Shown: one piece after another, positions 427-41,104 of the stretch
Position numbering within the stretch: the stretch's first letter is position 1
Layout: every line of letters starts with the position of its first letter
DNA from: Helicobacter sp. 16-1353
GTDB taxonomy: Bacteria; Campylobacterota; Campylobacteria; Campylobacterales; Helicobacteraceae
Assembly: GCF_003288815.1 (NCBI RefSeq)
Contig: NZ_NHYM01000005.1
Coordinates: forward strand, 62,001-126,000
Direction of reading: 5' to 3'
Length of the DNA: 64,000 nt
The notes under the pieces: model-generated
What the model saw: only the letters and a program-made list of their open reading frames with translations
Told to the model about the DNA's origin: nothing
The model's database searches: none
Translations under genes and position numbers: made by a program

Positions 427-2235
427 CTAGAATCCATATTTATCGATTGTTTCATCACTATCATTTTTAAATATCCTTTGATGGATTATTTTTCTTTCTT
501 GTGGCTCAAAATAATATCTCCCTGCACCTTTTATAATCGTTTTTGAGGAATTTGCTTTTGGAAAAATAAGTTCAAATAAAACATCATTATATTTCAACCA
601 ACCATCTTTGCAAATAAATTCCGCATTAAACACCTCTTCTTGTGTGGTTTTTAAATCCTGTTTTATTTGTATTTTTTCTTGTTCCATATCTAGATTCTGC
701 GTTTTCAAGGCTTTTATAGATTCTACAATATCTAAAAATGAATTATAATTTTTCACCACATAATCAGGTATTTCTTCATTTCGTGCTATATGCTTTTGAA
801 TGATATTTTTTAAATCTATTGCAGTATTTTTATATTTATTATATTTATATATCAATGATTCTAATTTTAGATTCAATGCTTTTTGATTTAGCACATTATT
901 CTTTAAGTTTTTTTCTAAATTAAGTATTTTTTCTCTATTTTTTTTATTGCCAAGTGGAGTAAAGATTATCTTATTACCTCCACCTTTCATAATATCTACA
1001 ACACATTTATTAGAAAATTTAATAATAGAATTAGAATAAACTTCATTGATATTTATATTATTAGCTGCCAAAGTTCCGCCATTTGCTTTTATTATTTCTA
1101 AATCATTGCAGTCTATATCCCCACTTTCCAAACTTTGTATTGTGGCGGAGTTGGAATCTAATTTTCCTTTATGGACATTTATACTAGCCTTATTAGCAAT
1201 AATTGTAGAATCCTTATGCGTTTGTCCCATCACAACTAAATCATTTGCTTTAACTCTTGTATTTGCTCCAATATTGCCACTTATAGTAATCTTTGATGCC
1301 ATAATAGAAACGCCATCTTTTAGTGCATCTTCAAATTCATCATCTGTTCCTATTAATAAACTTGTATTACTATCTAAATCACCTATAAAATGATAATTAT
1401 CTTTTATTTTAAGATTTTGGAAACTTAATTCCTCGTTAAATGAAAGCGAATTTTCATAAAAAATAACAAAACCGCTTTTTAGATTAATATATTTCTTGCA
1501 ATCATTCTCTACTATCTCATTAAAATCAGCCGTAATTGCAAGTGGATTATTTACTTTGGCTTCACTTTTTGTATATATCCCTTGCATATTTCTACCTTCA
1601 ACCCCATCTTTTGCAGGGTAAAATGCACAAATCAAGGTATTTTCTTTCGCACAAATAATATTTTTTTTCGACAAATCAATATCTTTAATAAAAAATTGTA
1701 TTTTAGAATCCCTAGAATCTCTAAAAATCTTGCTTGTATAGAGATTTATAACCAAATCATCTTCTAATGTATCTTTTATATATTGTAGATTTTTGGAAAT
1801 AATTTCCTTTTCATCTTTAAGTTTGCGTAATAAAATGCCTTTTGTGGCTTTTAATGCATTAATAGAATCTATAAAGTTTTCAATCTCATTAATATCTTTT
1901 GGGAGCGAGAATCCTTTGTGTAAGATTAAATCAAGGCTTTCAAAATTATTATTTATCCTAATGCCAAAATTATCCTTTTTTTGTTTTTTAAATATTTGGA
2001 TATTGTATGACTGCCTAAAATCAACACTATCACTTTCAAAAAGATTATCATCATCGATTAAATCCATATCATCATCTTTTAATAATTCAAAAAATTCTGC
2101 CCCTTTTTTCTTCATATATGTATTATATGATTTGATTCTAACCTCTAAATCATCGATTGGAATATGTGATTTTACGCTTAGATAATTAAGTATTTTTGAT
2201 ATATCATCTACATCATTTATTATTTTTGTTTGCAA
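427..2235 (-). CDS. FapA/DUF342-family flagellar assembly A-like protein
   Basis: 602 residues. The middle (about 290-420) has short beta-strand repeats with many Asn/Ile/Gly turns (ITISGNIGANTRV, SINVHKGKLDSNSATIQS), the right-handed beta-helix pattern of DUF342/FapA proteins, followed by a coiled-coil stretch (about 430-540, rich in Lys, Leu, Asn). FapA-type proteins are polymer-like cytoplasmic or envelope-associated proteins linked to flagellar assembly or polar localisation in some bacteria; the exact job here is inferred only. Start is TTG with AAGG upstream. The position between ruvA and a divergent murJ matches the H. pylori order as I recall it. Confidence 0.75.
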   Translation of the reverse strand: MQTKIINDVDDISKILNYLSVKSHIPIDDLEVRIKSYNTYMKKKGAEFFELLKDDDMDLIDDDNLFESDSVDFRQSYNIQIFKKQKKDNFGIRINNNFESLDLILHKGFSLPKDINEIENFIDSINALKATKGILLRKLKDEKEIISKNLQYIKDTLEDDLVINLYTSKIFRDSRDSKIQFFIKDIDLSKKNIICAKENTLICAFYPAKDGVEGRNMQGIYTKSEAKVNNPLAITADFNEIVENDCKKYINLKSGFVIFYENSLSFNEELSFQNLKIKDNYHFIGDLDSNTSLLIGTDDEFEDALKDGVSIMASKITISGNIGANTRVKANDLVVMGQTHKDSTIIANKASINVHKGKLDSNSATIQSLESGDIDCNDLEIIKANGGTLAANNININEVYSNSIIKFSNKCVVDIMKGGGNKIIFTPLGNKKNREKILNLEKNLKNNVLNQKALNLKLESLIYKYNKYKNTAIDLKNIIQKHIARNEEIPDYVVKNYNSFLDIVESIKALKTQNLDMEQEKIQIKQDLKTTQEEVFNAEFICKDGWLKYNDVLFELIFPKANSSKTIIKGAGRYYFEPQERKIIHQRIFKNDSDETIDKYGF

Positions 2236-2314
2236 AATTTAACCTTTTTTATTTTTTATTTGCAATTTATTATAAAATCCCAAATATAATTTTAAAAAAT
2301 AAGGGCTTAAAGAT

Positions 2315-3766
2315 TTGTTTAAGAAGGCTTTTTTTACAAATAGTAGCGGAATACTTTGTTCGAGAATCTTTGGATTTATCCGCGATTTATCGATGGCATC
2401 AACGCTTGGAGCAGGAATTTATAGCGATATATTTTTTATTGCTTTTAAACTACCAAATCTTTTTCGTAGGATTTTTTCCGAAGGGGCTTTTACGCAAAGC
2501 TTTTTACCATCTTTCATAGGAGCAAATAGAAAGGGGCTTTTTACCGTTACTGTATTTTTAATATTTTTTTCTTTCTTAATTATATTTAGTATTTGTGTTT
2601 GGATTTTTAGCGGATTTTTTACAAAATTATTAGCATATGGATTTGATGATTCGATTATAGCTCTTGCAAAGCCAATTGTGGCGATAAATTTCTGGTATTT
2701 ATGTCTTATTTTCTGTGTGAATTTTTTTAGCTCTTTATTGCAATATAAAAATAATTTTTGGGTGAGTGCGTATAATACAACATTATTAAATATATCAATG
2801 ATTCTTGCACTCTTTATAGCTAGAGATAAGGATTCCTACACTATTGTTTATTTTTTAAGCTATGGGGTTTTGATAGGCGGGATTTTGCAGATTTTACTTC
2901 ATTGCTATTCATTATATAAATTGCGATATTTTAAGCTTTTTATAGTTGGATTTAAAGATTTATATAGAATCTTAAGTGATAAAAATCAATTTGTATTAAA
3001 TACATTAAAACATAGTTTAGGCGGATTTTTTAGGCAATTTTTCCCAGCATTATTGGGGAGTTCTACCGCACAAATTGCATCATTTATTGATACATTATTA
3101 GCATCTTTTTTAGTATCTGGTTCAGTTTCGTATTTGTATTATGCAAATAGGATTTTTCAATTACCTTTAGCACTTTTTGCTATTGCCACTAGCACAGCTT
3201 TATTCCCAATGATTGCAAAAATGATAAAAAACAATAATGAAGAAAAAGCAATTGCATTATTAAAAAAAGGATTCTGGCTATTATTATTTAGTCTTGGTTT
3301 TTGTGTTATTGGTGGAATTGTGCTAAAAAATGAAATAATTTGGCTATTATTTGAGCGAGGAAAATTTATACGAAGCGACACAATAATCGTTGCAAATGTC
3401 TTTATGGCATATTTAATCGGGCTTTTACCATTTGGCTTAGCTAGGATTTTCTCACTTTGGCTTTATTCATTCAAAAGACAAACACAAGCAGCTAAAATAT
3501 CAGCGATTTCATTATTTTGTGGCGTAATATTTTCATTAATCTTAATGAAACCTTTTGGTGCTGTTGGATTAGCTATCGCTTCATCTTTAGGTGGGTTTAT
3601 ATTATTTATATTAACAATTAGAGCCTTTGGTTTTATGAGATTTATTAATATAATAAATAACAAAAAATTATTTATTTTGTTTATAATATTACTTTTATTA
3701 GAATTTATTATTTTATATTTTTTGAAACATTTTTTTAATTTAGGGGATTTTTATGCTCATCTTTGA
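2315..3766 (+). CDS. murJ: Lipid II flippase MurJ (MviN)
   Basis: Inner-membrane MATE-like flippase that moves lipid II across the membrane for peptidoglycan synthesis. 483 residues with roughly a dozen hydrophobic helices. The N terminus carries the family signature: SRIFGFIRDL near residue 15 and AFKLPNLFRRIFSEGAFTQ near residue 43. The start is a TTG at 2315; the conserved N terminus begins there and no upstream ATG is in frame nearby. The end overlaps cysS by 14 bp, so the two are probably co-transcribed. Divergent from the FapA-like gene across about 80 bp. Confidence 0.95.
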   Translation: MFKKAFFTNSSGILCSRIFGFIRDLSMASTLGAGIYSDIFFIAFKLPNLFRRIFSEGAFTQSFLPSFIGANRKGLFTVTVFLIFFSFLIIFSICVWIFSGFFTKLLAYGFDDSIIALAKPIVAINFWYLCLIFCVNFFSSLLQYKNNFWVSAYNTTLLNISMILALFIARDKDSYTIVYFLSYGVLIGGILQILLHCYSLYKLRYFKLFIVGFKDLYRILSDKNQFVLNTLKHSLGGFFRQFFPALLGSSTAQIASFIDTLLASFLVSGSVSYLYYANRIFQLPLALFAIATSTALFPMIAKMIKNNNEEKAIALLKKGFWLLLFSLGFCVIGGIVLKNEIIWLLFERGKFIRSDTIIVANVFMAYLIGLLPFGLARIFSLWLYSFKRQTQAAKISAISLFCGVIFSLILMKPFGAVGLAIASSLGGFILFILTIRAFGFMRFINIINNKKLFILFIILLLLEFIILYFLKHFFNLGDFYAHL

Positions 3767-5159
3767 TAGTTCAAAAAAACAAAAAGTAGAATTTGTATCC
3801 ATTGTGCCAAATGTCGTTAGGATTTATGTATGCGGACCAACAGTGTATGATAACGCACATCTAGGACACGCTAGAAGTGCTATTGCGTTTGATTTATTAC
3901 AGCGAATCTTAGAAGCAAATGGATATGAAGTTATTTTTGTAAAAAATTTCACAGATATTGATGATAAGATTGTCAAAAAAAGCAAAGAAGCGGATAAAAG
4001 TGTAGATGAAATAACTGCGACTTACACACAAAGCTATCTAAATGATATGGAATCTCTAGGCATAAGGCGACCGACATTAGAGCCTAAAGCAACGCAGAAT
4101 CTAGAAGCTATTTTTAAGATGATTAAAACATTGCTTAAAAACAAAAAGGCATATATTGCAAAGAATGGCGATATTTATATGAAAGTAAAGGAAGATTCTA
4201 AGTATGGGACATTATCAAATAGGATAAACCTAGAATCCCAAATAAGTAGAATTGGTGAAAATGAATTTAAAGAGGATATTAGGGATTTTGCACTTTGGAA
4301 GATTTTCAATAAAGCTGATGATGTGGCATATGACTCAGAATTTGGGCGAGGCAGACCCGGTTGGCATATAGAATGTAGCTCAATGATTGAAGAGCATTTA
4401 GCATATAAAGATAAAGATTATTCTATTGATATTCACGCTGGTGGGGCTGATTTGCTATTTCCTCATCATGAAAATGAAGCCTCACAAAGTAGATGTGCGA
4501 ATAATAAAGAACTAGCAAAATATTGGATTCATAATGGTTTTGTAAATGTAAATGGTGAAAAAATGAGTAAAAGTTTGGGAAATAGTTATTTTATAAAAGA
4601 TGCATTGAAAATCTATGATGGCGAGATTTTGCGATATTATCTATTGAGTATGCATTATCGTGCTCCTATAAATTTCTCACATAATGACATCATACAAAAT
4701 AAAAAGCGATTAGATAGGCTCTATCGTCTTAAAAAACGGCTCAATGTAGAATATAATGAAAACATACTAGATACAGCCTTTAGAGATGAATTTTTAGGGG
4801 CATTAAATGATGATATGAATATATCTATTGCTTTGAGTATTTTAGATTCTATGATATCAAATTACAATGATTTATTAGATAAGAATCCAAAAGATTTAGC
4901 CACTAAACAAAAGGCAATATCAAATATTATTTTCATAAATCAATTACTTGGTATAGGCGAAAAAGACCCAATAGAATATTTTCACTTAGGAGTTGATAGC
5001 GATACAAAAGCCTATATTGAAAAGAAAATTAAAGAGCGGAAAATCGCAAGAGAGAATAAGGATTATGCCTTAAGTGATAGAATCCGCGATGAATTGAAAG
5101 CAAAAAATATTTCTTTAATGGATACAAAAGATGGTGTTGTCTGGGAATATAGCGAATAA
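3753..5159 (+). CDS. cysS: Cysteinyl-tRNA synthetase
   Basis: Class I aminoacyl-tRNA synthetase that charges tRNA-Cys in the cytoplasm. 468 residues, usual length. It shows YVCGPTVYD with the zinc-binding Cys, the HIGH-type motif HLGHAR near residue 37, GRPGWHIECS and HAGGADLLFPHHENE for the zinc site, and KMSKSLGN near residue 270. ATG start with GGGGA just upstream, inside the end of murJ. The C-terminal part contains the usual ERKIARENKDYALSDRIRD helical region. Last gene of the murJ-cysS pair. Confidence 0.97.
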   Translation: MLIFDSSKKQKVEFVSIVPNVVRIYVCGPTVYDNAHLGHARSAIAFDLLQRILEANGYEVIFVKNFTDIDDKIVKKSKEADKSVDEITATYTQSYLNDMESLGIRRPTLEPKATQNLEAIFKMIKTLLKNKKAYIAKNGDIYMKVKEDSKYGTLSNRINLESQISRIGENEFKEDIRDFALWKIFNKADDVAYDSEFGRGRPGWHIECSSMIEEHLAYKDKDYSIDIHAGGADLLFPHHENEASQSRCANNKELAKYWIHNGFVNVNGEKMSKSLGNSYFIKDALKIYDGEILRYYLLSMHYRAPINFSHNDIIQNKKRLDRLYRLKKRLNVEYNENILDTAFRDEFLGALNDDMNISIALSILDSMISNYNDLLDKNPKDLATKQKAISNIIFINQLLGIGEKDPIEYFHLGVDSDTKAYIEKKIKERKIARENKDYALSDRIRDELKAKNISLMDTKDGVVWEYSE

Positions 5160-5204
5160 ATCTTTAGTTAAAATATCCTATTATATTACCTTTAAGTGAA
5201 AATT

Positions 5205-5216
5205 AAAAAAAAAAAA
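5205..5216 (+). repeat. Poly-A tract (A12)
   Basis: Twelve consecutive A bases, ending three bases before a TATAAT box that sits in front of the prepilin-like gene. Tracts of this length slip readily during replication, and here slippage would change the spacing or curvature upstream of the -10 box. No other A run of this length was noticed in the window. Confidence 0.9.
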
Positions 5217-5219
5217 GTT

Positions 5220-5225
5220 TATAAT
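5220..5225 (+). promoter_or_regulatory. Putative -10 box of the prepilin-like gene
   Basis: TATAAT directly after the A12 tract, 62 bp before the ATG at 5288. No clear -35 is visible, as is usual for sigma-70 promoters of this bacterial group, which rely on AT-rich upstream DNA. Confidence 0.6.
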
Positions 5226-5287
5226 TCGTTTACTTTAAGATTTAATCTAAAAAGAATCTATAAAGAATTCAATATTAAGGATTAAGT

Positions 5288-5824
5288 ATGGAGAATATAA
5301 AAAGAAATGGCTTCTCGATGATTGAATTAGTTTTCGTTATCGTCATACTAGGTGTTTTAGCAGCAGTTGCCGTTCCTAGATTCGTAACTACTAGAACTGA
5401 TGCACAAGTGGCAATGTTTAGAAGCGACATCGCCTCCACGCTAAAAGCAATTCCAGCTAGGGTTTTCGCTGAAAATATCGACACAACAGCAGCAACTCCG
5501 CAAGATGGAACTGTTTCTTGGGCTCAATGGATTATCGATACTGGCGGATTAGACCCGAGTAGATGGGATTTGGTTACTGTTACTAATGGTGTTTTTCCAA
5601 AGGTAGTTGGTGGAAATCGAGGCGTGGGAACTGCTAATACTTGCGGAACTGACCCTGTAATTCAAATCGATACAACTACAGGTAATCTAATATTTGACCC
5701 AGCTAGATTGCAAGACCCGGGCTCAGGAACTCATGCGACGCTATGCACGAATTTAAGGAATTCCTATCCAAGTAATTCAAATAGAATTATCCCACTTGCT
5801 ACAACAGGTGCAGTTAAATTCTAA
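5288..5824 (+). CDS. Type IV prepilin / pseudopilin-like protein
   Basis: 178 residues. The N terminus is a textbook class III signal: a short leader MENIKRNG, cleavage before FSMIELVFVIVILGVLA with Glu at mature position 5, then a hydrophobic helix. Family knowledge: such proteins need a prepilin peptidase and an assembly ATPase; neither is encoded in this window. The rest is a polar, Thr-rich globular region with two Cys (about 118 and 153) that could form a disulfide. ATG start with AAGGA upstream. Base composition is richer in G+C than the flanks. It stands alone between cysS and convergent sdaA, preceded by an A12 tract beside its promoter. Whether it is a major pilin or a minor pseudopilin cannot be told. 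Confidence 0.85.
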   Translation: MENIKRNGFSMIELVFVIVILGVLAAVAVPRFVTTRTDAQVAMFRSDIASTLKAIPARVFAENIDTTAATPQDGTVSWAQWIIDTGGLDPSRWDLVTVTNGVFPKVVGGNRGVGTANTCGTDPVIQIDTTTGNLIFDPARLQDPGSGTHATLCTNLRNSYPSNSNRIIPLATTGAVKF

Positions 5825-5830
5825 ATCTTA

Positions 5831-5860
5831 TTATATTAAGGGATTAATCCCTTAATATAA
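5831..5860 (+). terminator. 30-bp perfect palindrome after the prepilin-like gene
   Basis: A perfect 30-base inverted repeat centred on ATTAAT, starting 7 bases after the stop codon. It can form a long hairpin; there is no T run directly behind it, so termination is likely but not certain. Confidence 0.55.
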
Positions 5861-5964
5861 ACTTCAAATAATTCTTAAATATCTTAAAAGATTCAAGCTT
5901 TTCTTTAAAACTAAAGATTCTAGATAACAATAGCTAGAATCTTAGAATCTTAAATCCTAGTGAT

Positions 5965-5992
5965 TCTAATATAATAATCCCACTCGCTACAA
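5965..5992 (+). pseudogene. Possible remnant of the 3' end of a duplicated pilin gene
   Basis: These 28 bases match 5777-5804, the codons for NRIIPLATT near the pilin C terminus, at 24 of 28 positions by eye, and translate in one frame as N-I-I-I-P-L-A-T. No other part of a second pilin copy can be recognised around it. Confidence 0.35.
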
Positions 5993-6030
5993 TAATAGAT
6001 ATTATTCTAATAGAATTACTCTAATATTTT

Positions 6031-6056
6031 AGATTCTAGCTTAGCTAGAATCTTTT
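6031..6056. terminator. Hairpin between convergent prepilin gene and sdaA
   Basis: AGATTCTAGC and GCTAGAATCT form a 10-bp stem around a TTA loop, followed on the plus strand by TTTTCT. It is made from the GATTCT word that abounds in this genome. Confidence 0.55.
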
Positions 6057-6087
6057 CTATCCAATTAAAAATTGATATAAAAATAAT

Positions 6088-7455
6088 CTAGCAAACTATC
6101 GTTTTTGCTAAGCCACCTAGTGCTGTTTCCTTATATTTTGCATTCATATCTTTCCCTGTTTCATACATCGTTTTAATAATATCATCAAGATTTACTATTG
6201 GGGTAGATTTCCTACTCATCGCCATTCTAGAGGCACTAATAGCCTTAATCGCCCCAAAAGCATTTCGCTCAATACAAGGAATTTGAACCAATCCTCCCAC
6301 AGGGTCGCAAGTAAGCCCCAAATGATGTTCCATTGCTATTTCAGCGGCATTACAAGCCACTTTTGCACTAGCTCCCATAGAAGTTGCCATCGCAGCTGCT
6401 GCCATTGAACTCGCGCTGCCGATTTCTGCTTGACAACCTGCTTCCGCTCCGCTAATACTCGCATTCTTCTTATACAAAGAGCCAATAAGCATTGCAGTTA
6501 GTAGAAAATCCATAATTCTACCATCATTAAAGCCAACGCTATGATTTTTCAAATACAGCATAACCGCCGGCACAACCGCACAAGCCCCATTCGTAGGAGC
6601 ACTTACAACTCTCCCGCCACTTGCATTCTCTTCGGCAATCGCAATAGCATATAATGAAATAAAATCAATAATCGCCATTGGGTCGCTACTCATAACCAAC
6701 CTTTCACTTAAGCCCACAGCGCGTCTTTTAAGATTAAGAGAGCCGGGCAGATACAGCGACTTTGGGTGGATTCCATTATAATAAGATTCTTGCATCGCCT
6801 CCCAAATCTCAAAACAATAGCTTCGAATCTCCTCTTTTGTGTGGAATTGCAACTCATATTCATAAGATAGCTCCGCTAGATTCCATTTGTTTGCTTCGCA
6901 TAGGGCAAGACACTCTTTAGCGGAATTAAAATCTAAGGCTAGATTCTTGGATTTTTCTTGTGAGTTTGGATTTTCGCGATATTTTTTTAGCTCTACTTCA
7001 TTCATTACGAATCCCCCGCCAATAGAGTAATAAATCTCTTCTAGCAAGATTCTATTATCTATACTAAAAGCCTCAATCTTTAGGGCATTTTGATGTAATG
7101 GTGCAAACTCCTTAGAAAAAACCAAATCGCTTTTATAATTAAAATCAATCTCTTTAAATCCGCCAAAATCAAGCTTTTTAGATTCCAAAGCCTTTTTTAA
7201 AATACTCTCTTGTGTAGTAGAATCTAACTCCCTAGCCTTACACCCGCTCAATCCCCAAATAATCGCCTTATCACTCAAATGCCCCTTGCCCGTTAGGGAT
7301 AAAGAGCCATAAAAAGTAACCTTAATACGATTTAGCGAATCTAGCTTAATCTTATCCCTAGCTTTAGCACAAAATAGATTCCCAGCGATTACAACTCCTA
7401 GCGTATGCGACGATGACGGACCAATGCCAATTTTAAAAATACTTAAATTACTCAT
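6088..7455 (-). CDS. sdaA: L-serine ammonia-lyase (iron-sulfur, single chain)
   Basis: Converts L-serine to pyruvate and ammonia in the cytoplasm with a [4Fe-4S] cluster. 455 residues, the length of one-chain bacterial enzymes. The N-terminal SIFKIGIGPSSSHT and the C-terminal GAEAGCQAEIGSASSMAAA and CDPVGGLVQIPC segments carry the conserved Cys ligands. ATG start. It lies 8 bp after sdaC, so uptake and breakdown of serine are coupled, as in H. pylori and Campylobacter, where serine is a major carbon source. Its G+C is visibly higher than that of neighbours such as truD. Confidence 0.96.
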   Translation of the reverse strand: MSNLSIFKIGIGPSSSHTLGVVIAGNLFCAKARDKIKLDSLNRIKVTFYGSLSLTGKGHLSDKAIIWGLSGCKARELDSTTQESILKKALESKKLDFGGFKEIDFNYKSDLVFSKEFAPLHQNALKIEAFSIDNRILLEEIYYSIGGGFVMNEVELKKYRENPNSQEKSKNLALDFNSAKECLALCEANKWNLAELSYEYELQFHTKEEIRSYCFEIWEAMQESYYNGIHPKSLYLPGSLNLKRRAVGLSERLVMSSDPMAIIDFISLYAIAIAEENASGGRVVSAPTNGACAVVPAVMLYLKNHSVGFNDGRIMDFLLTAMLIGSLYKKNASISGAEAGCQAEIGSASSMAAAAMATSMGASAKVACNAAEIAMEHHLGLTCDPVGGLVQIPCIERNAFGAIKAISASRMAMSRKSTPIVNLDDIIKTMYETGKDMNAKYKETALGGLAKTIVC

Positions 7456-7463
7456 AATAAATC

Positions 7464-8726
7464 TTAGAAAAATTTATAAATTACGCTTATGATAGTAAGG
7501 ATTCCAGTAACAAGTAGGAAAATATCAAGCCATAGATTTCGCCACTTTTTCATATTAGAAACGGTATAAAGCCCAATAAGTGGCATAATAAACAATATCG
7601 CTGCAATTATTGGACCGCCTAAATCCTCGATAAATCCCAAAATGCTAGGATTGATATATGCAACTAAGATTATCGTTACAAACATAAAAATAGTAGTAAA
7701 GCGATTGATGGCTTTTATATTAGGATTCTCCACTCCATAGGATTTTAGAGCCTTTCTAATAATCCCATTTAAGCCCTCCGCTGCTCCAAAATAATGCCCA
7801 AAAAATGAAGTTACAATCGCCAAAAATGCAACCAACGGAGCACCATAAGCGATTAGTGGATTATCAAACTTATTTGCAAAATATGAGAGAATGGGGATAT
7901 TTGCCTCCCTTGCAGCAGCAAAATCACTAGAATCTAAAGCCAAAATACAAGAAAATACAAAAAACATAACAAAAACTAAAAGCATTAAAGCGGTGTTAAA
8001 AAGGATTTGATTTGACTTTTTAGGGGCATTATCACCATATTCTCGTCTTAAGCTTTTAGAAAAAGTTGAAATGGCAGGAGAATGATTAAAAGAAAAGACA
8101 AGCACAGGCAAAGTCAGCCATATAACAACTAAAAAATCCTTGAAATTCGGCACAAAATTTATTGCTTCGATTTTCCAATGTGGAATAAGATAAAGCGAAA
8201 ATATAAATAAAACTACGCAAAGCGGATAAACCAAGATATTACAAACCTTAGTAATAATCTCTTCTTTAAAAAGCATTACAATCATCATCGCACTAACCAA
8301 AATAATCGCCAAAATCGCCCTAACACTTGGATAAAGGGCTTTTGTAGCGGGGTCAAAAAGTGAGGTTAGATTTAGCTGATTTATAAAAAAACTACCAAAA
8401 GTATTTGTAATCCCAACACCATAAGCAAGGCAAATAGGATAAATCGCAAAGAAATAAAGCAATGTAATTACAACACTCACTCCCCTACCCCAATGCTCTT
8501 CGGCAGCTTGTGTAATATCACTTTGGCTATTGCTTGATGCAAGAACAAAACGCGATAAAGCCCTATGACTAAGCCAAACCATAGGAAAAATCAAAATAGT
8601 CATAACCACAACAGGGAAGAATCCGCCCGTCCCCGCACGAATCGGCAAAAATAAGATTCCAGCCCCCACAGCAGTGCCAAAAAGCGAAAGTGTCCATCGT
8701 GTATCAAATGAAGTCCAATTTTTCAT
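7464..8726 (-). CDS. sdaC: Serine transporter SdaC (HAAAP family)
   Basis: Inner-membrane amino-acid/proton symporter, 420 residues with about 11 hydrophobic helices. The start of the first helix, LSLFGTAVGAGILFLPI, is the hallmark of the HAAAP family. Upstream member of the sdaC-sdaA operon, with AAGGATT upstream of its ATG. Serine is assigned from the sdaA partner and from family membership; threonine uptake cannot be excluded from sequence. Confidence 0.93.
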   Translation of the reverse strand: MKNWTSFDTRWTLSLFGTAVGAGILFLPIRAGTGGFFPVVVMTILIFPMVWLSHRALSRFVLASSNSQSDITQAAEEHWGRGVSVVITLLYFFAIYPICLAYGVGITNTFGSFFINQLNLTSLFDPATKALYPSVRAILAIILVSAMMIVMLFKEEIITKVCNILVYPLCVVLFIFSLYLIPHWKIEAINFVPNFKDFLVVIWLTLPVLVFSFNHSPAISTFSKSLRREYGDNAPKKSNQILFNTALMLLVFVMFFVFSCILALDSSDFAAAREANIPILSYFANKFDNPLIAYGAPLVAFLAIVTSFFGHYFGAAEGLNGIIRKALKSYGVENPNIKAINRFTTIFMFVTIILVAYINPSILGFIEDLGGPIIAAILFIMPLIGLYTVSNMKKWRNLWLDIFLLVTGILTIISVIYKFF

Positions 8727-23974: not shown

Positions 23975-25861
23975 ATGATGAATTTTGCTAGTATGGGGGG
24001 GGGGAAGCTAGATTCCAAATTAGATTTCAACGCAGATTCCAGCCTAGAATCTAATACAGATTCTATAGATTCTGCCCAATATTTAGATTCTACTTCAAGC
24101 CAAAAACGAAATTCCAACGCAGATTCCAGCCTAGAATCTAATACAGATTCTACACCAAGCCAAACGCGAGATTCCACAAATCACTTAGATTCCACTCCAA
24201 ACCCGCGAAAAACACGAAAAAATAGCTTTTGGAATTATGCATTTTATGCTTTTATTTTAAGCTATTGCTTATGCATTGTTATTTATTCTAGATATGCTTT
24301 TAACCTAGATGACGCACTTTGGTGGCTAGATATATATCATAATATCCCAATTACAAATGGTATCAATCTAGGCATAGGCAGATTCTACCCACTAGCTTTT
24401 AGCGACCTAAATATGCTAATGCAAATCTCACATTCGCCTTATTTATTCTTTGGCTATCACGCAATAATTACGCTTTTTATCGCTCTTTTGTTTTGGAATT
24501 TTTTAAAAAATGCACTTCCAAATAGTCCTTTTATTAGATTTATCATTTGTTTTATCTGCTTTTTAAATATGGGCTTTGTAACGATTATGGTAGGCATTTG
24601 CTATCCGGAAAGTCCGCTTTGCTTTGCTTTGGTGCTTTTTGTATTTATGAGTTATAAGATTTATAAAAGTGAAAATAGAGCGATTTTTTTCATACTTGGG
24701 ATTTTAGCGGCAAATATGGCGATTTATCTAAAAGAGCCTAGTTTTCTAGCTATTGGGGCTTTTGGATTTTTAAATATAATCTATATGTATGCTAGTAAAA
24801 AAATCAATAGAATCTATTTTATTTATTGCATCTTATTGCTTGTTAGTGCATTAATTTTTGTGGTGATTTACACTCTTTATGTTATGCCAAATGTAGAATC
24901 TAGCTATGAAGAAGTCGCATTTAACAAGGCAAATCTAAGCTTTTATAATTACGCCATATTTTTAATAAAAGGCTTATTTAACTTTATCTTAAATGACGCT
25001 TTTATAGTTATCTTACTGCCATTTATTACACTTTGCAGAATCTACTCTACTATAAAATCAAAAAGCCTAGATTCTATAGCCATTTTTTGGGATAGCTTAC
25101 TAGTGGGCGGAATCTTATATTTTGCTGTGTATATAAAATTGCAACTTTTTACTAGCTATTACTTAGTGCCTATATATTTTATCGTAGCTGGGAGTGTGGT
25201 GTATTATTTAGGTAAATATCTAAGATATAAAATAGCTAAACTAATCTTTGGGTTTTGTATGATTTTATATATTACTAATGTCTTACCACAATCCATTTGG
25301 ACTTTTATGTCGCTAAAATCTCAAGGCGTAGCATTCCACCAAAGCTTGGATTTTATGGCTAAATACATTAGCCAAAATAGCGATAAAACAAGAATCTATT
25401 TTGATGGCATAGGCAGAGGAAGCGGATATAACGACCACTTTTGGTTTTATTTCATAAAATATTTAGAAGAAATCTATAATGTCTCTAACTTTGATGTTTT
25501 ATCAAAAGAGCCAAACGCCACTAGTCTTTTACAAAGCCCACTTCATTGGCAAAATGACAAAAATTCGCCATTTACTATCCATAATTCTACGAGCGTATCC
25601 ACCCCAAAAAAGGGCGATATAATCATACTAAATCAAAATTCAAATAAATATATAGATTCCGCTTATTTACAAAATATGCAAGAAAAATATGAGCTTATTT
25701 ATAAAACTAATGTCGTTGGACTGCCCTATATCAGCCTAAAAATGATTATAAAATATCTAATGATAAATCTTGGAAACTCTCCCTTAGCAAAGGATGCATT
25801 AAGCGGAAATAGCAATCCTTTCAAACTGCCAATAAATAATTATATCTATAAGGTCAAGTGA
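23975..25861 (+). CDS. Phase-variable polytopic membrane protein, glycosyltransferase-like
   Basis: 628 residues. After a short start (MMNFASMGGGK) comes a 60-residue linker rich in Asp-Ser/Glu-Ser, then about ten hydrophobic helices and a C-terminal soluble region with DGIGRGSG. The layout resembles PMT/ArnT-like or GtrII-type membrane glycosyltransferases; NLDDALWWLDIYHN in the first loop has acidic residues like their catalytic loop, but I do not see a decisive family signature. ATG with AAGGAG upstream. A G10 tract at codons 7-10 leaves the frame open here, so the gene is in the ON state; a change of one base would truncate it within the linker. Confidence 0.7.
   Translation: MMNFASMGGGKLDSKLDFNADSSLESNTDSIDSAQYLDSTSSQKRNSNADSSLESNTDSTPSQTRDSTNHLDSTPNPRKTRKNSFWNYAFYAFILSYCLCIVIYSRYAFNLDDALWWLDIYHNIPITNGINLGIGRFYPLAFSDLNMLMQISHSPYLFFGYHAIITLFIALLFWNFLKNALPNSPFIRFIICFICFLNMGFVTIMVGICYPESPLCFALVLFVFMSYKIYKSENRAIFFILGILAANMAIYLKEPSFLAIGAFGFLNIIYMYASKKINRIYFIYCILLLVSALIFVVIYTLYVMPNVESSYEEVAFNKANLSFYNYAIFLIKGLFNFILNDAFIVILLPFITLCRIYSTIKSKSLDSIAIFWDSLLVGGILYFAVYIKLQLFTSYYLVPIYFIVAGSVVYYLGKYLRYKIAKLIFGFCMILYITNVLPQSIWTFMSLKSQGVAFHQSLDFMAKYISQNSDKTRIYFDGIGRGSGYNDHFWFYFIKYLEEIYNVSNFDVLSKEPNATSLLQSPLHWQNDKNSPFTIHNSTSVSTPKKGDIIILNQNSNKYIDSAYLQNMQEKYELIYKTNVVGLPYISLKMIIKYLMINLGNSPLAKDALSGNSNPFKLPINNYIYKVK
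23995..24004 (+). repeat. Poly-G tract (G10) in the coding sequence
   Basis: Ten G bases spanning codons 7-10 of the membrane protein gene. Typical length and position for slipped-strand phase variation in this bacterial group. Confidence 0.9.
24028..24152 (+). repeat. 38-bp direct repeat in the Asp/Ser-rich linker
   Basis: 24028-24065 and 24115-24152 are identical, 87 bp apart, and encode NADSSLESNTDS twice. Both copies carry GATTC/GAATC words. Confidence 0.9.
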
Positions 25862-28073: not shown

Positions 28074-28286
28074 TTATTTGTTGTCTAAGTGGTTTTTTAG
28101 CTCATCAAATTTCTTATCCATCGCCTTTTGGTTGTTGTGTGAGCTAACGCTAAAAAACGCCCAAATTGTCGCTGGTAGCCAACCTATCAATGTGATTTGC
28201 AGTATCAAGCAAATAATACCCTGAAACGGCTTGCCTATGGTAAAAAACACTAGAAATGGAAAAAATAACGCTAGGATATATCGCAT
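28074..28286 (-). CDS. YqaE/Pmp3 (UPF0057)-family small membrane protein
   Basis: 70 residues, two hydrophobic helices: ILALFFPFLVFFTIG, then ICLILQITLIGWLPATIWAFF with the Gly-Trp-Leu-Pro turn, followed by a charged tail. Pmp3-type proteotlipid-like peptides affect membrane potential or stress tolerance in other organisms; role here unknown. ATG with AAGGAGGG upstream. A G9 tract lies just upstream of its -10 box on the minus strand, so transcription is probably switchable. Confidence 0.72.
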   Translation of the reverse strand: MRYILALFFPFLVFFTIGKPFQGIICLILQITLIGWLPATIWAFFSVSSHNNQKAMDKKFDELKNHLDNK

Positions 28287-28320: not shown

Positions 28321-28339
28321 ATTATACGAACCCCCCCCC
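28321..28339 (-). promoter_or_regulatory. Promoter with G9 tract in the spacer
   Basis: On the minus strand a G9 run (28331-28339) is followed by TTCG and the -10 box TATAAT (28326-28321), 35 bp before the ATG of the YqaE-like gene. The tract lies where the -35/-10 spacer would be, so length changes would alter promoter strength. Confidence 0.7.
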
Positions 28340-28400: not shown

Positions 28401-28627
28401 TTAGATTTTCACAAACTCAAATAAGCCAGTAACGCCCCAGTTTTTATACTCTGGGATTTGGGCTAGGATTTTGGCATCTAAAATTGGCTTTGGAATTTTA
28501 TTTGGATTCGCATTTAGATTCGTGGCGGAGTTATTAGATTCGGCGGAATCTATGGAATCTAAAGAATTTGCGGAATCTAATGCGACAGAATCCGGATTTT
28601 TAGAGCTAGATTCTGCAGAATCTAGAT
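28401..28627 (-). pseudogene. Out-of-frame C-terminal part of the methyltransferase gene
   Basis: Reading past the G9 tract after loss of one base (or gain of two) continues the 28606-29436 frame for about 75 more codons: an Asp-Ser-rich linker, then IPKPILDAKILAQIPEYK and NWGVTGLFEFVKI before TAA at 28401. Endings with Gly-Leu/Ile-Phe-Glu-Phe-Val/Ile-Lys are typical of DUF268-type proteins as I recall them, so this is likely the genuine C terminus. Confidence 0.7.
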
Positions 28628-29436
28628 CCCCCCCCCATATTACGAGATTTCACAGATTCCACGCCAGAATCCATACCGGAATCCACGCCAGATTCCACAT
28701 TTTCCAACGCATATCTCACCTCGAATCCATCGATATAGCCAAACTCCAAAAGTCGCATTTTATCAAGCGTATCGATTATCGTCTGTGGCTTATAAACCCT
28801 GTGAGCGTTAAAGCAGACCTTGTCAATCTGCCCCACCGGCACACTTATATACAGCTTCCCGCCGGGCTTTAGCACCCGCTGGAACGCCCTTAGAGCCTCC
28901 GCCCACGCATTAGGAGCGACTTCATCGCCATATCGCCCCAAGCCAAAATGCTCCACGCTACACAAGGCTGAAAGTGACTCAAGCGAGTTTGAAGCGATAT
29001 TTGCCAAGTTCGTCGCATCAGCTTGGATATAGGTAAAATCGCCGTTTTTATTTAGGAATTTCGTATCCATTTTGTTATCCATTTTGCGAATGTCAATTAA
29101 CACGATTTTCTGCCCCAAGCTTAGGCAGTGCGCGATAAATCCAGCCACCGAGCTACCCACATCATAATGCACTTTTGGCGCATTTTTCGCCACCTTCCTA
29201 GCACCCCAAATGTCCTGCACGAAGTAGCTACTATCCAACTCGCCGTTATTTGCGTATTTATCGCCTAGGCAGATATAATCATGCCCCTTATTTACGCTAA
29301 ATTGCTCATCATTATTTAGCCTCACATACTTTTCCCAATCATTTTCAAACTCGCCCAAACTCATCTTTTTACTTGGCTTCAAAATCGCCCTTGCCCTCAC
29401 CTTTAGGGCGTTTTTTAATAATTTTATTCGCCTCAT
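28606..29436 (-). CDS. DUF268-type SAM-dependent methyltransferase, phase-variable, apparently OFF
   Basis: 276 residues in the present frame. HYDVGSSVAGFIAHCLSLGQKIVLIDIR near residue 90 is a motif I-like SAM site, LSALCSVEHFGLGRYGD near residue 160 and LKPGGKLYISVPVG near residue 197 follow. Such proteins occur in surface-glycan clusters. The frame ends at CRI-stop shortly after a G9 tract, following an Asp-Ser/Glu-Ser-rich segment; the expected family C terminus is found in the adjacent frame (28401-28627). The full protein would need G8 or G11. ATG start. GC-rich codon use over most of the gene. Confidence 0.78.
   Translation of the reverse strand: MRRIKLLKNALKVRARAILKPSKKMSLGEFENDWEKYVRLNNDEQFSVNKGHDYICLGDKYANNGELDSSYFVQDIWGARKVAKNAPKVHYDVGSSVAGFIAHCLSLGQKIVLIDIRKMDNKMDTKFLNKNGDFTYIQADATNLANIASNSLESLSALCSVEHFGLGRYGDEVAPNAWAEALRAFQRVLKPGGKLYISVPVGQIDKVCFNAHRVYKPQTIIDTLDKMRLLEFGYIDGFEVRYALENVESGVDSGMDSGVESVKSRNMGGGSRFCRI
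28628..28636 (-). repeat. Poly-G tract (G9 on the minus strand)
   Basis: Nine C on the plus strand inside the methyltransferase gene; determines whether the C-terminal 75 codons are read. Confidence 0.9.
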
Positions 29437-29491: not shown

Positions 29492-30511
29492 TTAGAGCCT
29501 AATTGCATTTATAATATCAAGTTCTTTATTATTTAGGATTCTTAGCTTAAAAGCCTCAACACATTTGGCGTTTTCGAGCGTTAAAATTACCATTTGTAGT
29601 ATATTGTTGTTACTATTTGCGACCTCGTAGCGGGACTTCCCAAAGCCACTCATCGCCTTTTGAAGCGGGGCTTTATAATCCATACCAATCACGCCGTCAA
29701 ACGCCCCGCACAGCCCCAAATCGCTCACATAAAAGCTACCATTTTGGATATGCAAATCATCGCTGCCGATATGCGTATGAGTGCCAAAAAACGCCGAGAT
29801 TTCGCCCCTAAGCATACAAAAAGCCGCCCTTTTCTCGCTACTCGCCTCGCCGTGAAAATCGATGATGATATTATCAAAGCCCAGCTTTTTTACCGCACTC
29901 ACGGCGTTTTGGAGCTTGTAAAAGGCATTATCCAAGTTCATATTAATGCCATAATGCCCCATTATGTTAATAACTGCGATTTTTTCTCCCCCCAAATTAA
30001 TACAGCAAATGCCACTCCCGGGGGTCTTTGGCGGGAAATTTAGCGGACGCAAGATTGGCATTATAAAGCTACTTTTGGTTAGATTCTGGCTTAAATTAAA
30101 CATTTGGAATGTGGGGGAATCTGGGCTAGAATCTTGGGATTTTGGGCTAGATTCTGCAATTTTAGCGGAATCTGTGCTAGATTTGACTTTAGATTCGACG
30201 AATTCCACGCTAGAATCTAAGCCGTTTTTACACACAGAATCCACACTAGATTCCAAATCTCTGCCCATAACCGCCGTAATTTCCATTTTATCAAATGAGT
30301 GATTTCCGCCTGTGATTAGGTCGATTCCAGCACTAAGCAGCTCATTTGCATTCTTAATATTTAGCCCAAAGCCCCCACTTGCGTTCTCCGCATTTGCGAT
30401 TACAAAATCTAGCTTATATTTTTTGCGGATTTCACTTAGATTATCAACTACCATATTTCGCCCTGCTCTGCCTACGATATCGCCAATTAAGCCAATTTTT
30501 AATACACTCAA
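29492..30511 (-). CDS. YmdB-type metallophosphoesterase with Asp/Ser-rich insertion
   Basis: 339 residues. GLIGDIVGRAGR, IANAENASGGFG, LITGGNHSFDK, IDFHGEASSEKRA and FFGTHTHIGSDD give the metal ligands of the YmdB family (2',3'-cyclic nucleotide phosphodiesterases in Bacillus). These proteins are usually about 260-270 residues; the surplus is a low-complexity stretch at residues about 83-149, with a DS-rich core, placed between GGNHSFDKMEI and LRPLNFPPKTPGSG, which are normally close together. Overlaps mfd by 4 bp, so it is co-transcribed with it. Confidence 0.85.
   Translation of the reverse strand: MSVLKIGLIGDIVGRAGRNMVVDNLSEIRKKYKLDFVIANAENASGGFGLNIKNANELLSAGIDLITGGNHSFDKMEITAVMGRDLESSVDSVCKNGLDSSVEFVESKVKSSTDSAKIAESSPKSQDSSPDSPTFQMFNLSQNLTKSSFIMPILRPLNFPPKTPGSGICCINLGGEKIAVINIMGHYGINMNLDNAFYKLQNAVSAVKKLGFDNIIIDFHGEASSEKRAAFCMLRGEISAFFGTHTHIGSDDLHIQNGSFYVSDLGLCGAFDGVIGMDYKAPLQKAMSGFGKSRYEVANSNNNILQMVILTLENAKCVEAFKLRILNNKELDIINAIRL
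30110..30256 (-). repeat. GATTC-rich low-complexity insertion in the YmdB-like gene
   Basis: About 147 bp encoding Ser, Asp, Glu, Lys-rich sequence (ESSVDSV, SSTDSAKIAESS, SQDSSPDSP). I count eight or nine GATTC/GAATC words here and just beyond. Confidence 0.8.
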
Positions 30512-38422: not shown

Positions 38423-41104
38423 CTATTTTACCACGAGATTTACTAGCTTATTTGGCACGATTATTTCTTTAATTATCGTTTTTTCCTCTAGCCATTTGGA
38501 AACTTCACTTTTCGCAAGGGCTAAAAGCTCGTCATTTGGGGTATTAACCGCCACTTCGATTTCGCCTCGCTTCTTGCCATTTATAGTAATTGCGATATTT
38601 ATACTCTCGCTTTTTAACGCCTCATTATCAATTTCAATTTTTCGCAAATTCTCCAAATTAAATAGCTTTTGGCTTAGCTCATAGCTTGTATGCGGGATTA
38701 TCGGCTCCAAAATATTCAATAAAATATAATATCCCTCAAACCAAACTTGAGCGTTTTCTTGGGCGTTCAGCGCATTAAACGCCTCCATACAAGAAGCAAT
38801 AAGCGTATTTAGCGGATAATCGCGATTTGAAAATGTCGCTTCATATTTAGATAGTGCCTCATAGACCTTTTTCCTAGCGTATTTTTCGTCCTTATTTAGA
38901 TTCTCAAATGCAAGATTTTCAAAGCTAAGATTCTCGATTTTCGCTTTGTCGGCGTTTAGAAAAATCCTATTTATAAAGCGATATGCCCCCTCTAGCGCGT
39001 CGTCATTCCACTCTAGCTCCTTTTTTGGTGGAGCGGCAAAAAGTATGAATAACCTCGCACTATCCGCCCCATAGGCTTCGATAATATCGCTTGGAGAGAC
39101 CACATTGCCTTTTGATTTACTCATCTTAAAGCCGTCTTTTAGCACCATTCCTTGCGTAAGCAATCTAGCAAATGGCTCATCAATGTTAATATGCCCTAAA
39201 TCACGCAAAACTTTAGTGAAGAATCTCGCATACAGCAAGTGTAAAACAGCATGTTCAATCCCGCCGATATACTCATCGACATTTAGCCAATATTCCAGCG
39301 ATTTTGTATCAAATGCACTCTTTTCCCACAATTCCCGCGGGGTCGTGTAGCGTAAAAAATACCAGCTAGATTCCACAAATGTATCCATAGTATCGCACTC
39401 TCTTAACGCCTCACCTCCGCACTTAGGGCATTTGGTGAATTTCCAAGTGGGGTGCTTCTCTAGTGGGCTTCCCTCGCCATCAAGGGAAATATCATCTGGT
39501 AATAAAACTGGCAAATTCGTCTCTTTCACAATGCCGCATTTCTCGCAGTGGATTAGCGGTATCGGCGTCCCCCAGTATCTCTGCCTTGAAATTCCCCAAT
39601 CTCTAAGCTTAAAATTTATAACGCTTTTGCCAATCTTATTTTTCTCAAAATATTTGATAATCGCACTTCGTCCCTCTTCACTAGAAAATCCGCTAAACTC
39701 ACCACTAGCAATAAGGATTCCGTCATCGATAAAGGCGGAATCTAGCAAATCTAGATTCGTGGAATCTGTGGAATCTATGGCGGTTTTGGCAGAATCTAAG
39801 GCAGAATTTTTAGCAGAATCCGCGTTTTTAAGATTTGTGGAATCTGTGGCATTTTTAGCGGAATCCACGGCGGAATCTAGATTCGCTAAATCCGGCGAAT
39901 CTAAAGCCGAATCCGCCGAATCTACGCCCTTAAAATCGCCCTTTTTGCAAACGACTTGCTTTATCTCCAAATTATACTTTTTGGCAAACTCGAAATCTCG
40001 CTCATCGTGAGCCGGCACGCACATCACCGCCCCACTTCCATAATCCATTAGCACGAAATTTGCCACAAAAATCTCAAGCCGTTTTTTAGTAAGCGGGTGA
40101 AGCGCGTAGATTCCCGTGCTAACGCCAATTTTCTCCTTGCTAACCCTATCTTTAAAAATCATATTTTGCATAGAAGTTACTAAATCCGCTTTGTCTTTTG
40201 AAAGCAGATTTTCTTTAAGCAAATGCTTTACAAGCTCGTGTTCTGGGGCAATCGCACAATAAGTTACGCCATAAATCGTATCTGCCCTCGTAGTAAACAC
40301 ACTTATCTCATTAATCTCGCCAATCGGTCGCTCTAACTTAAAGCTAAACTCCAGCCCAAGCGACTTGCCAATCCAATTTTTTTGCATAGTAATTACTTGC
40401 TTCGACCAATTCCCCTCCAAGTCCTCCAAACAGCTAAGCAACTCATCGGCGTATTTGGTAATCCGCAAATAATATTGATGCATTTCTTTCTGCACCACTT
40501 CCGCGTCGCAACGCCAACATTTGCCGTCCACCACTTGCTCATTTGCCAAAACCGTCTTATCATTTGGACACCAATTTAGATAGGCTTTTTTGCGGTAAAC
40601 TAGGTCGTTTTCCCACATTTGGTTAAAAAACTCCTGCTCCCACTTCGTATAAATGGGGTCGCTCGTGGCAAACTCTCTATTTTTGGAGAATGAGAATCCA
40701 AGGCTTTTTAGGGATTTTTGCATATTTGCGATATTTTCGTAAGTCCAAGTTTTGGGGTGCAAGTTATGCTTAATTGCGGCATTTTCAGCAGGCATACCAA
40801 AGGAATCCCAGCCGATGGGGTGCAAGACATTAAAGCCATTTTTACGATAATACCGCGCTATCGCATCGCCAATGGAGTAGTTTCGCACATGTCCCATATG
40901 CAGATTCCCGCTTGGGTAGGGAAGCATACTTAGGATATATTTTTTTGGGAGACTAAAATCATTTTTCGGCTCGAAGCTGGAATCTAGATTCCCAGATTCG
41001 CCGGATTTAGCAGAATCTGCACTCAAAACCGCACTAGATTCCGCACTTTCCCCGCTCCAAATTTTCTGCCACTTTTTCTCAATTTCCTTTGGATTATAGA
41101 CCAT
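38423..41104 (-). CDS. leuS: Leucyl-tRNA synthetase with two Asp/Ser-rich insertions
   Basis: Class I synthetase charging tRNA-Leu. 893 residues, against about 806 in H. pylori as I recall. [17 protein letters not shown] (HIGH) is near residue 57, the editing domain has [19 protein letters not shown] and [15 protein letters not shown], and [11 protein letters not shown] (KMSKS) is near residue 665. The extra length is one stretch at residues about 17-43, and about 65 residues after [12 protein letters not shown] in the editing domain, both dominated by Asp-Ser and Ala-Glu-Ser. ATG start. Followed directly by lptE. Confidence 0.96.
39735..39930 (-). repeat. GATTC-rich insertion in the LeuRS editing domain
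   Basis: About 195 bp encoding roughly 65 residues with 15 or so Asp-Ser pairs. I count 13 GATTC/GAATC words in about 210 bp. Confidence 0.85.
40976..41056 (-). repeat. GATTC-rich insertion near the LeuRS N terminus
   Basis: 81 bp encoding residues 17-43 ([18 protein letters not shown] and on), between the first helix EKKWQKIW and [15 protein letters not shown]. Confidence 0.8.

What the first reader, a model, noticed from the sequence alone, without database searches (positions are those of the whole stretch)
28401..29436. Methyltransferase switched OFF by a G9 tract; true C terminus lies in the next frame
At G9 the protein ends 10 residues after the tract; reading with G8 or G11 gives 75 more residues ending in NWGVTGLFEFVKI, which fits the DUF268 C terminus. 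This gives a direct test of phase state.
Basis: partly seen in the sequence, partly recalled or inferred. Interest (0 to 1): 0.72.

Follow-up and report, generated by a model that had tools for sequence, protein, structure and literature searches.

The report
Methyltransferase gene with wandering phase switch
A Helicobacter methyltransferase gene is read here in its 'off' form because a run of nine Gs puts its conserved last piece out of frame; in all 27 copies of this gene compared a G-run is present, but it sits at one of three different places in the gene, as if being switchable matters more than where the switch lies.

Summary
On the minus strand a G9 tract (28628-28636) ends the 276-aa reading six residues further on. 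The next frame continues for 74 codons without a stop and ends IPEYKNWGVTGLFEFVKI.

Relatives in Helicobacteraceae end IPxxxNxGxTGLFEFxKx. The window's out-of-frame end matches H. bilis at 14/20 residues (70%), the same identity as the in-frame core (69.6%), so the end has not decayed. In a model of an intact relative this end is the last strand of a class I methyltransferase fold (pLDDT 97), so the G9 product lacks it. OFF is the best reading; that this strain switches is inferred.

The tree needs at least two changes of site. 11 copies read ON and 16 OFF.

SSR switching, C-terminal tracts included, is known. Shifting of the switch within one family while every copy keeps one is the less usual part.

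The parts
28606..29436 (-). Methyltransferase ORF as it reads at G9, 276 aa plus stop
   Evidence: Pfam DUF268 47.6 bits and Methyltransf_11 36.1 bits, both over cut-off
29149..29169 (-). HYDVGSS, the glycine-rich SAM-binding motif I at the end of strand 1
   Evidence: H, Y, D, G, S and S invariant in 14 aligned relatives; motif assignment from general knowledge of class I methyltransferases
29023..29064 (-). Loop between strands 2 and 3, where most relatives carry their G tract; no tract here
   Evidence: DNA at this site compared in all copies
28467..28716 (-). Asp/Ser-rich insert made of GAATC/GATTC words, replacing about 17 residues of the relatives; holds the G9 tract
   Evidence: 5 and 9 GAWTC words within 150 nt up- and downstream of the tract
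28628..28636 (-). G9 tract, the frame switch
28401..28625 (-). Open continuation in the other frame, 74 codons plus stop
28407..28466 (-). Conserved C terminus LAQIPEYKNWGVTGLFEFVK, the last strand of the fold, out of frame at G9
   Evidence: 14/20 identical to the H. bilis relative, E 2e-07 for that single comparison; equivalent strand E280-288 in the relative's model

Best explanation
A solitary class I SAM-dependent methyltransferase (DUF268/Methyltransf_11) of an enterohepatic-type Helicobacter is under ON/OFF phase variation by slipped-strand changes in a G tract. At G9 translation leaves the frame between the last two strands of the fold and stops six residues later. The product lacks the conserved final strand (TGLFEFVK) and is most likely unstable or inactive. 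Shown: tract, frames, conserved end out of frame, a tract in every aligned relative, mixed ON and OFF states among relatives, final strand in the model. Inferred: slippage in this strain, loss of activity at G9, the substrate (unknown, possibly a surface glycan or small molecule), and selection for switchability as the reason that each lineage keeps a tract although its place differs.
For: G9 and frames. Relatives end GLFEFxK in frame. Out-of-frame end is 70% identical to the H. bilis relative, as is the in-frame core, 69.6% over 217 residues. All 27 copies with a complete enough gene carry a G9-G16 tract; 11 ON, 16 OFF. At one site in the H. bilis group the lengths are 13, 12, 10 and 13, and only the G12 copy is out of frame. 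Fold: model of the H. bilis relative, mean pLDDT 84, last strand 280-288 at 97; best PDB matches are class I methyltransferases. The G9-form model has lower confidence (mean 73.8, below 50 at residues 255-271).
Against: No second isolate of this species was available, so length variation at this tract was not seen. The tract lies late in the gene, so a nearly complete protein is still made, which C-terminal switching would also predict. G9 is at the short end of the tracts in this family (9-16). The lower confidence of the G9 model may come partly from the alignment used, since A2 pairs SRFCRI with the real strand.
Confidence: 0.82

Rival explanations
1. C-terminal sequence switching: both the short and the long protein are made and active, and the tract changes a tail rather than turning the enzyme off, as proposed for eight H. 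canadensis genes.
For: The tract is late in the gene, and this kind of switching has been described in a Helicobacter (PMC2823697). The catalytic part up to strand 6 is intact at G9.
Against: The lost piece is a conserved core strand, present in nearly all relatives. In relatives the tract sits in the N-terminal or central part, where a shift can only be OFF.
Confidence: 0.08
2. Tract length in the assembly is wrong and the gene is in frame in the real DNA.
For: Homopolymers are error-prone; the assembly is in 32 contigs and no reads were available.
Against: Nine is short for modern short-read errors (general knowledge). OFF states are common in the family (16 of 27), so an OFF copy needs no error.
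Confidence: 0.05
3. A decaying pseudogene: the gene is being lost and the frameshift is permanent.
For: Remnants exist in relatives: G004 holds short pieces with 2 TAA and G065 is full of stops.
Against: In the window the tract is the only lesion; the out-of-frame end is as conserved as the core and the 74 codons are open.
Confidence: 0.03
4. Transcriptional slippage or ribosomal frameshifting on the G9 run gives a fixed mix of short and long protein without any change in DNA.
For: The overlap of frames at a homopolymer is the anatomy such events need.
Against: Nothing seen beyond the run itself. Relatives carry tracts of 9-16 at several sites with both in-frame and out-of-frame lengths, the usual sign of DNA slippage.
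Confidence: 0.02

Closest known systems
C-terminal sequence switching in Helicobacter canadensis (Snyder et al. 2010, PMC2823697)
   Same: Poly-G tract near the 3' end of a coding region in a Helicobacter; length changes swap the C terminus.
   Different: There most frame changes alter the end by only a few residues and expression is thought to continue. Here the switched end is a conserved structural strand, and relatives carry the tract elsewhere in the gene.
Translational ON/OFF phase variation by homopolymeric G tracts (Helicobacter, Campylobacter; e.g. PMC6321876)
   Same: G tract in a coding region, ON and OFF lengths across genomes, many such tracts in one genome.
   Different: The tract usually lies near the 5' end; in this family it lies at one of three places, in the window close to the 3' end.
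Pfam DUF268 (PF03269) / Methyltransf_11 (PF08241) methyltransferases
   Same: Both models match over their cut-off; DVGSS motif; class I fold in the model.
   Different: DUF268 matches only positions 28-127 of 176; the C-terminal piece is not recognised by Pfam. No function is known for this branch.
Phasevarions (phase-variable DNA methyltransferases, e.g. modH, PMC5700931)
   Same: A phase-variable methyltransferase in Helicobacter.
   Different: No DNA-methyltransferase family matches; resembles small-molecule class I enzymes, so there is no reason to expect a phasevarion.

Membership tests
SSR (contingency) locus with translational phase variation | Repeat tract in the coding region, longer than chance | tested here: met
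   G9; G8 runs 9 overlapping matches against 0.29 expected in the window
SSR (contingency) locus with translational phase variation | Tract length decides which protein is made | tested here: met
   Three frames after the tract end after 6, 1 and 74 residues
SSR (contingency) locus with translational phase variation | Length varies between related genomes | tested here: met
   13, 12, 10 and 13 at one site in the H. bilis group; 9-16 in the family; 11 ON and 16 OFF. Shown for relatives, not for the window species
SSR (contingency) locus with translational phase variation | Length varies within the population of this strain | not testable with these tools
   No reads and no second isolate
C-terminal sequence switching (PMC2823697) | Tract near the 3' end, different frames give different C termini | tested here: met
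   Tract 800 nt into a 1036-nt region
C-terminal sequence switching (PMC2823697) | Protein still expressed and working in each frame | tested here: inconclusive
   G9 product lacks the last core strand; activity not measured
DUF268 / class I SAM methyltransferase | Profile match over curated cut-off | tested here: met
   47.6 bits against 25 and 36.1 against 21.2
DUF268 / class I SAM methyltransferase | Class I methyltransferase fold | tested here: met
   Model of the H. bilis relative: top PDB hits are class I enzymes, E about 1e-8, TM 0.4-0.6
DUF268 / class I SAM methyltransferase | Enzyme activity | not testable with these tools
   Substrate unknown
Phasevarion | DNA methyltransferase | tested here: not met
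   Only DUF268, Methyltransf_11 and Methyltransf_25 in Pfam; weak sub-cut-off UbiE match in NCBIfam

The most novel reading that the evidence does not exclude
The phase switch of one gene family has changed its place inside the gene (N-terminal linker, loop between strands 2 and 3, insert before the last strand) while every sufficiently complete copy keeps a tract; what is kept is switchability, not the tract's position. In the window lineage the new tract arose within an Asp/Ser-rich insert built from a genome-wide repeated word.
Probability: 0.65. Interest if true: 0.6.

Novelty: new variant of a known kind. Interest (0 to 1): 0.5.

Why it matters
If it holds, the family is a natural experiment in how contingency loci arise: every copy can switch, but the switch sits at three different places, each in a predicted loop. 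That would argue that selection acts on switchability itself, since a tract merely inherited with the gene would stay put. It also shows that automated annotation would call the window gene a normal 276-aa protein and miss its conserved end, so late tracts deserve a check against relatives.

Tried and rejected
Pfam on the 74-residue piece: no family, so the C-terminal argument rests on relatives. PDB by sequence profile: nothing; fold search used instead. A read-through of the window protein with a four-letter word hit an earlier GGAT and was dropped; an intact relative was modelled instead. Order-wide search: the family hardly occurs outside Helicobacteraceae (one distant copy, G392, in a sample of 399). 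Conserved neighbourhood: none; the gene lies between hydrogenase genes and an alanyl-tRNA synthetase-like ORF in H. bilis, beside secretion-type genes in MIT 00-7814, and beside ymdB here (names of the neighbours in the relatives are my reading of the translations), so neighbours say nothing about the substrate. Papers on tracts changing place within one gene: three searches and two phasome papers gave nothing; no proof of absence. That the N and C sites come from one loss of the middle tract is not excluded (AU p 0.18).

Full report
What is there. On the minus strand an ORF runs from 29436 to 28606 (276 aa) and contains a run of nine G at 28636-28628. Pfam gives DUF268 (residues 115-217, profile 28-127 of 176) and Methyltransf_11, both over cut-off. 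Six residues after the run the frame stops. One of the other two frames stops at once; the third is open for 74 codons, while the first two hold 8 and 7 stops in the same 222 bases, and it ends LAQIPEYKNWGVTGLFEFVKI. G runs of eight or more are well above chance in the window, and the genome has 122 tracts of nine or more G, so this is a genome rich in such switches.

Is the out-of-frame end the real end? Relatives were found in 28 of 121 genomes of the family and in four named records: two H. bilis, one 'H. rappini' and Helicobacter sp. MIT 00-7814. The in-frame copies end in GLFEFxKx or a close variant. The window's out-of-frame end matches the H. bilis protein at 14 of 20 residues, E 2e-07 for that comparison. 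That is 70%, the same as the in-frame core (69.6% over 217 residues). A piece that had been out of frame for long would have drifted further, so the end has been translated in frame for most of its history. This is the main argument against a dead gene and for a reversible switch.

What does the G9 form lack? In a model of the H. bilis relative (mean pLDDT 84, pTM 0.80) the end is the last strand, residues 280-288, with mean pLDDT 97. The best solved matches are class I SAM methyltransferases, at E about 1e-8 and TM 0.4-0.6. In that fold the last strand normally lies inside the sheet (general knowledge; the strand order was not measured here). The model of the 276-aa form is less certain (mean 73.8; below 50 at residues 255-271), but its alignment pairs SRFCRI with the real strand, so this is weak support. 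I take the G9 form as OFF, with C-terminal switching as the main rival.

The wider pattern. For 27 copies in 26 genomes the tract was mapped on the H. bilis protein without joining frames. All 27 have a tract, G9 to G16. Four (H. bilis group) have it at residues 25-31, in a low-confidence linker. Twenty-two have it at residues 139-147, in the loop between strands 2 (122-126) and 3 (145-149); these include the two copies of a paralogue about 40% identical (G048, G045). The window alone has it between residues 251 and 269, before the last strand. The four H. bilis-group copies and the window have no tract at the middle site. Two remnants (G004, G089) and one distant copy in another family (G392) have none in the gene. 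With 122 tracts per 1.9 Mb a 900-base gene would hold about 0.06 by chance (my arithmetic).

History. On a tree without the tract columns the three states need two changes, the least possible; the middle site is on both sides of the deepest split, so it is probably the oldest. The window's exact place in the tree is not resolved, and one shared loss of the middle tract by the window and H. bilis lines is not excluded (AU p 0.18). The gene has no fixed neighbourhood, so it may move between lineages; the tree is of the gene, not of the species.

State. Eleven copies are in frame and 16 out of frame; two of the latter (G065, G069) have further lesions. At the N-terminal site the lengths 13, 10 and 13 are in frame and 12 is out. 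That is what slippage predicts. Tract lengths in assemblies can be wrong, the more so the longer the run.

Where the window's tract came from. It lies in an insert of about 80 residues rich in Asp and Ser that replaces some 17 residues of the relatives and consists of GAATC/GATTC words. The same word makes Asp/Ser-rich stretches in LeuS, YmdB and a 628-aa ORF in the window. G054 has a similar insert just after its middle tract. In the whole genome about 40 of 122 tracts have GAWTC within 30 nt downstream of the G run and about 23 upstream; the background in the window is 17%. The excess is moderate and I draw no mechanism from it.

Known or new. Homopolymer switching is well known in Helicobacter, and late tracts that change the C terminus were described in H. 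canadensis (PMC2823697). New here, as far as the searches go, is a family in which each copy keeps a tract while its place in the gene differs. No paper on this was found in five look-ups.

Noticed in passing
whole window, e.g. 38423-41104 (LeuS), 29492-30511 (YmdB), 23975-25861; other genomes: The word TAGAWTCTA (core GAATCT/AGATTC) is hugely over-represented: GAATCT 292 against 46 expected, TAGAATCTA 48 against 1.4 in the window. By genome: 588-1110 in near-complete genomes of the window's own genus (control 20-146), 469-8587 in the H. bilis genus (G046: 8587 in 2.7 Mb), hundreds to about 2200 in four further genera, but 4-76 in g2, like its control. GAGTC/GACTC is rare (6 each against 418). 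It makes Asp/Ser-rich inserts in conserved proteins. It could be a DNA-uptake word or a selfish short repeat. No paper found with these words.
   Followed up: partly
28331-28339 (-): A second G9 tract lies 45 bases upstream of the start of a Pmp3-family ORF (28074-28286, minus strand), a possible promoter or leader switch.
   Followed up: no
23995-24004 (+): G10 tract seven codons into a 628-aa predicted membrane-type ORF (23975-25861) without Pfam or NCBIfam match; followed by the same Asp/Ser-rich words.
   Followed up: no
L005 (G004), L032 (G065), L033 (G069): Decayed copies of the methyltransferase gene in relatives: short pieces with stops in G004, many stops in G065, a second frameshift in G069.
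   Followed up: partly
G000, whole genome: 122 runs of nine or more G; GAWTC lies within 30 nt downstream of about 40 of them and upstream of about 23.
   Followed up: partly
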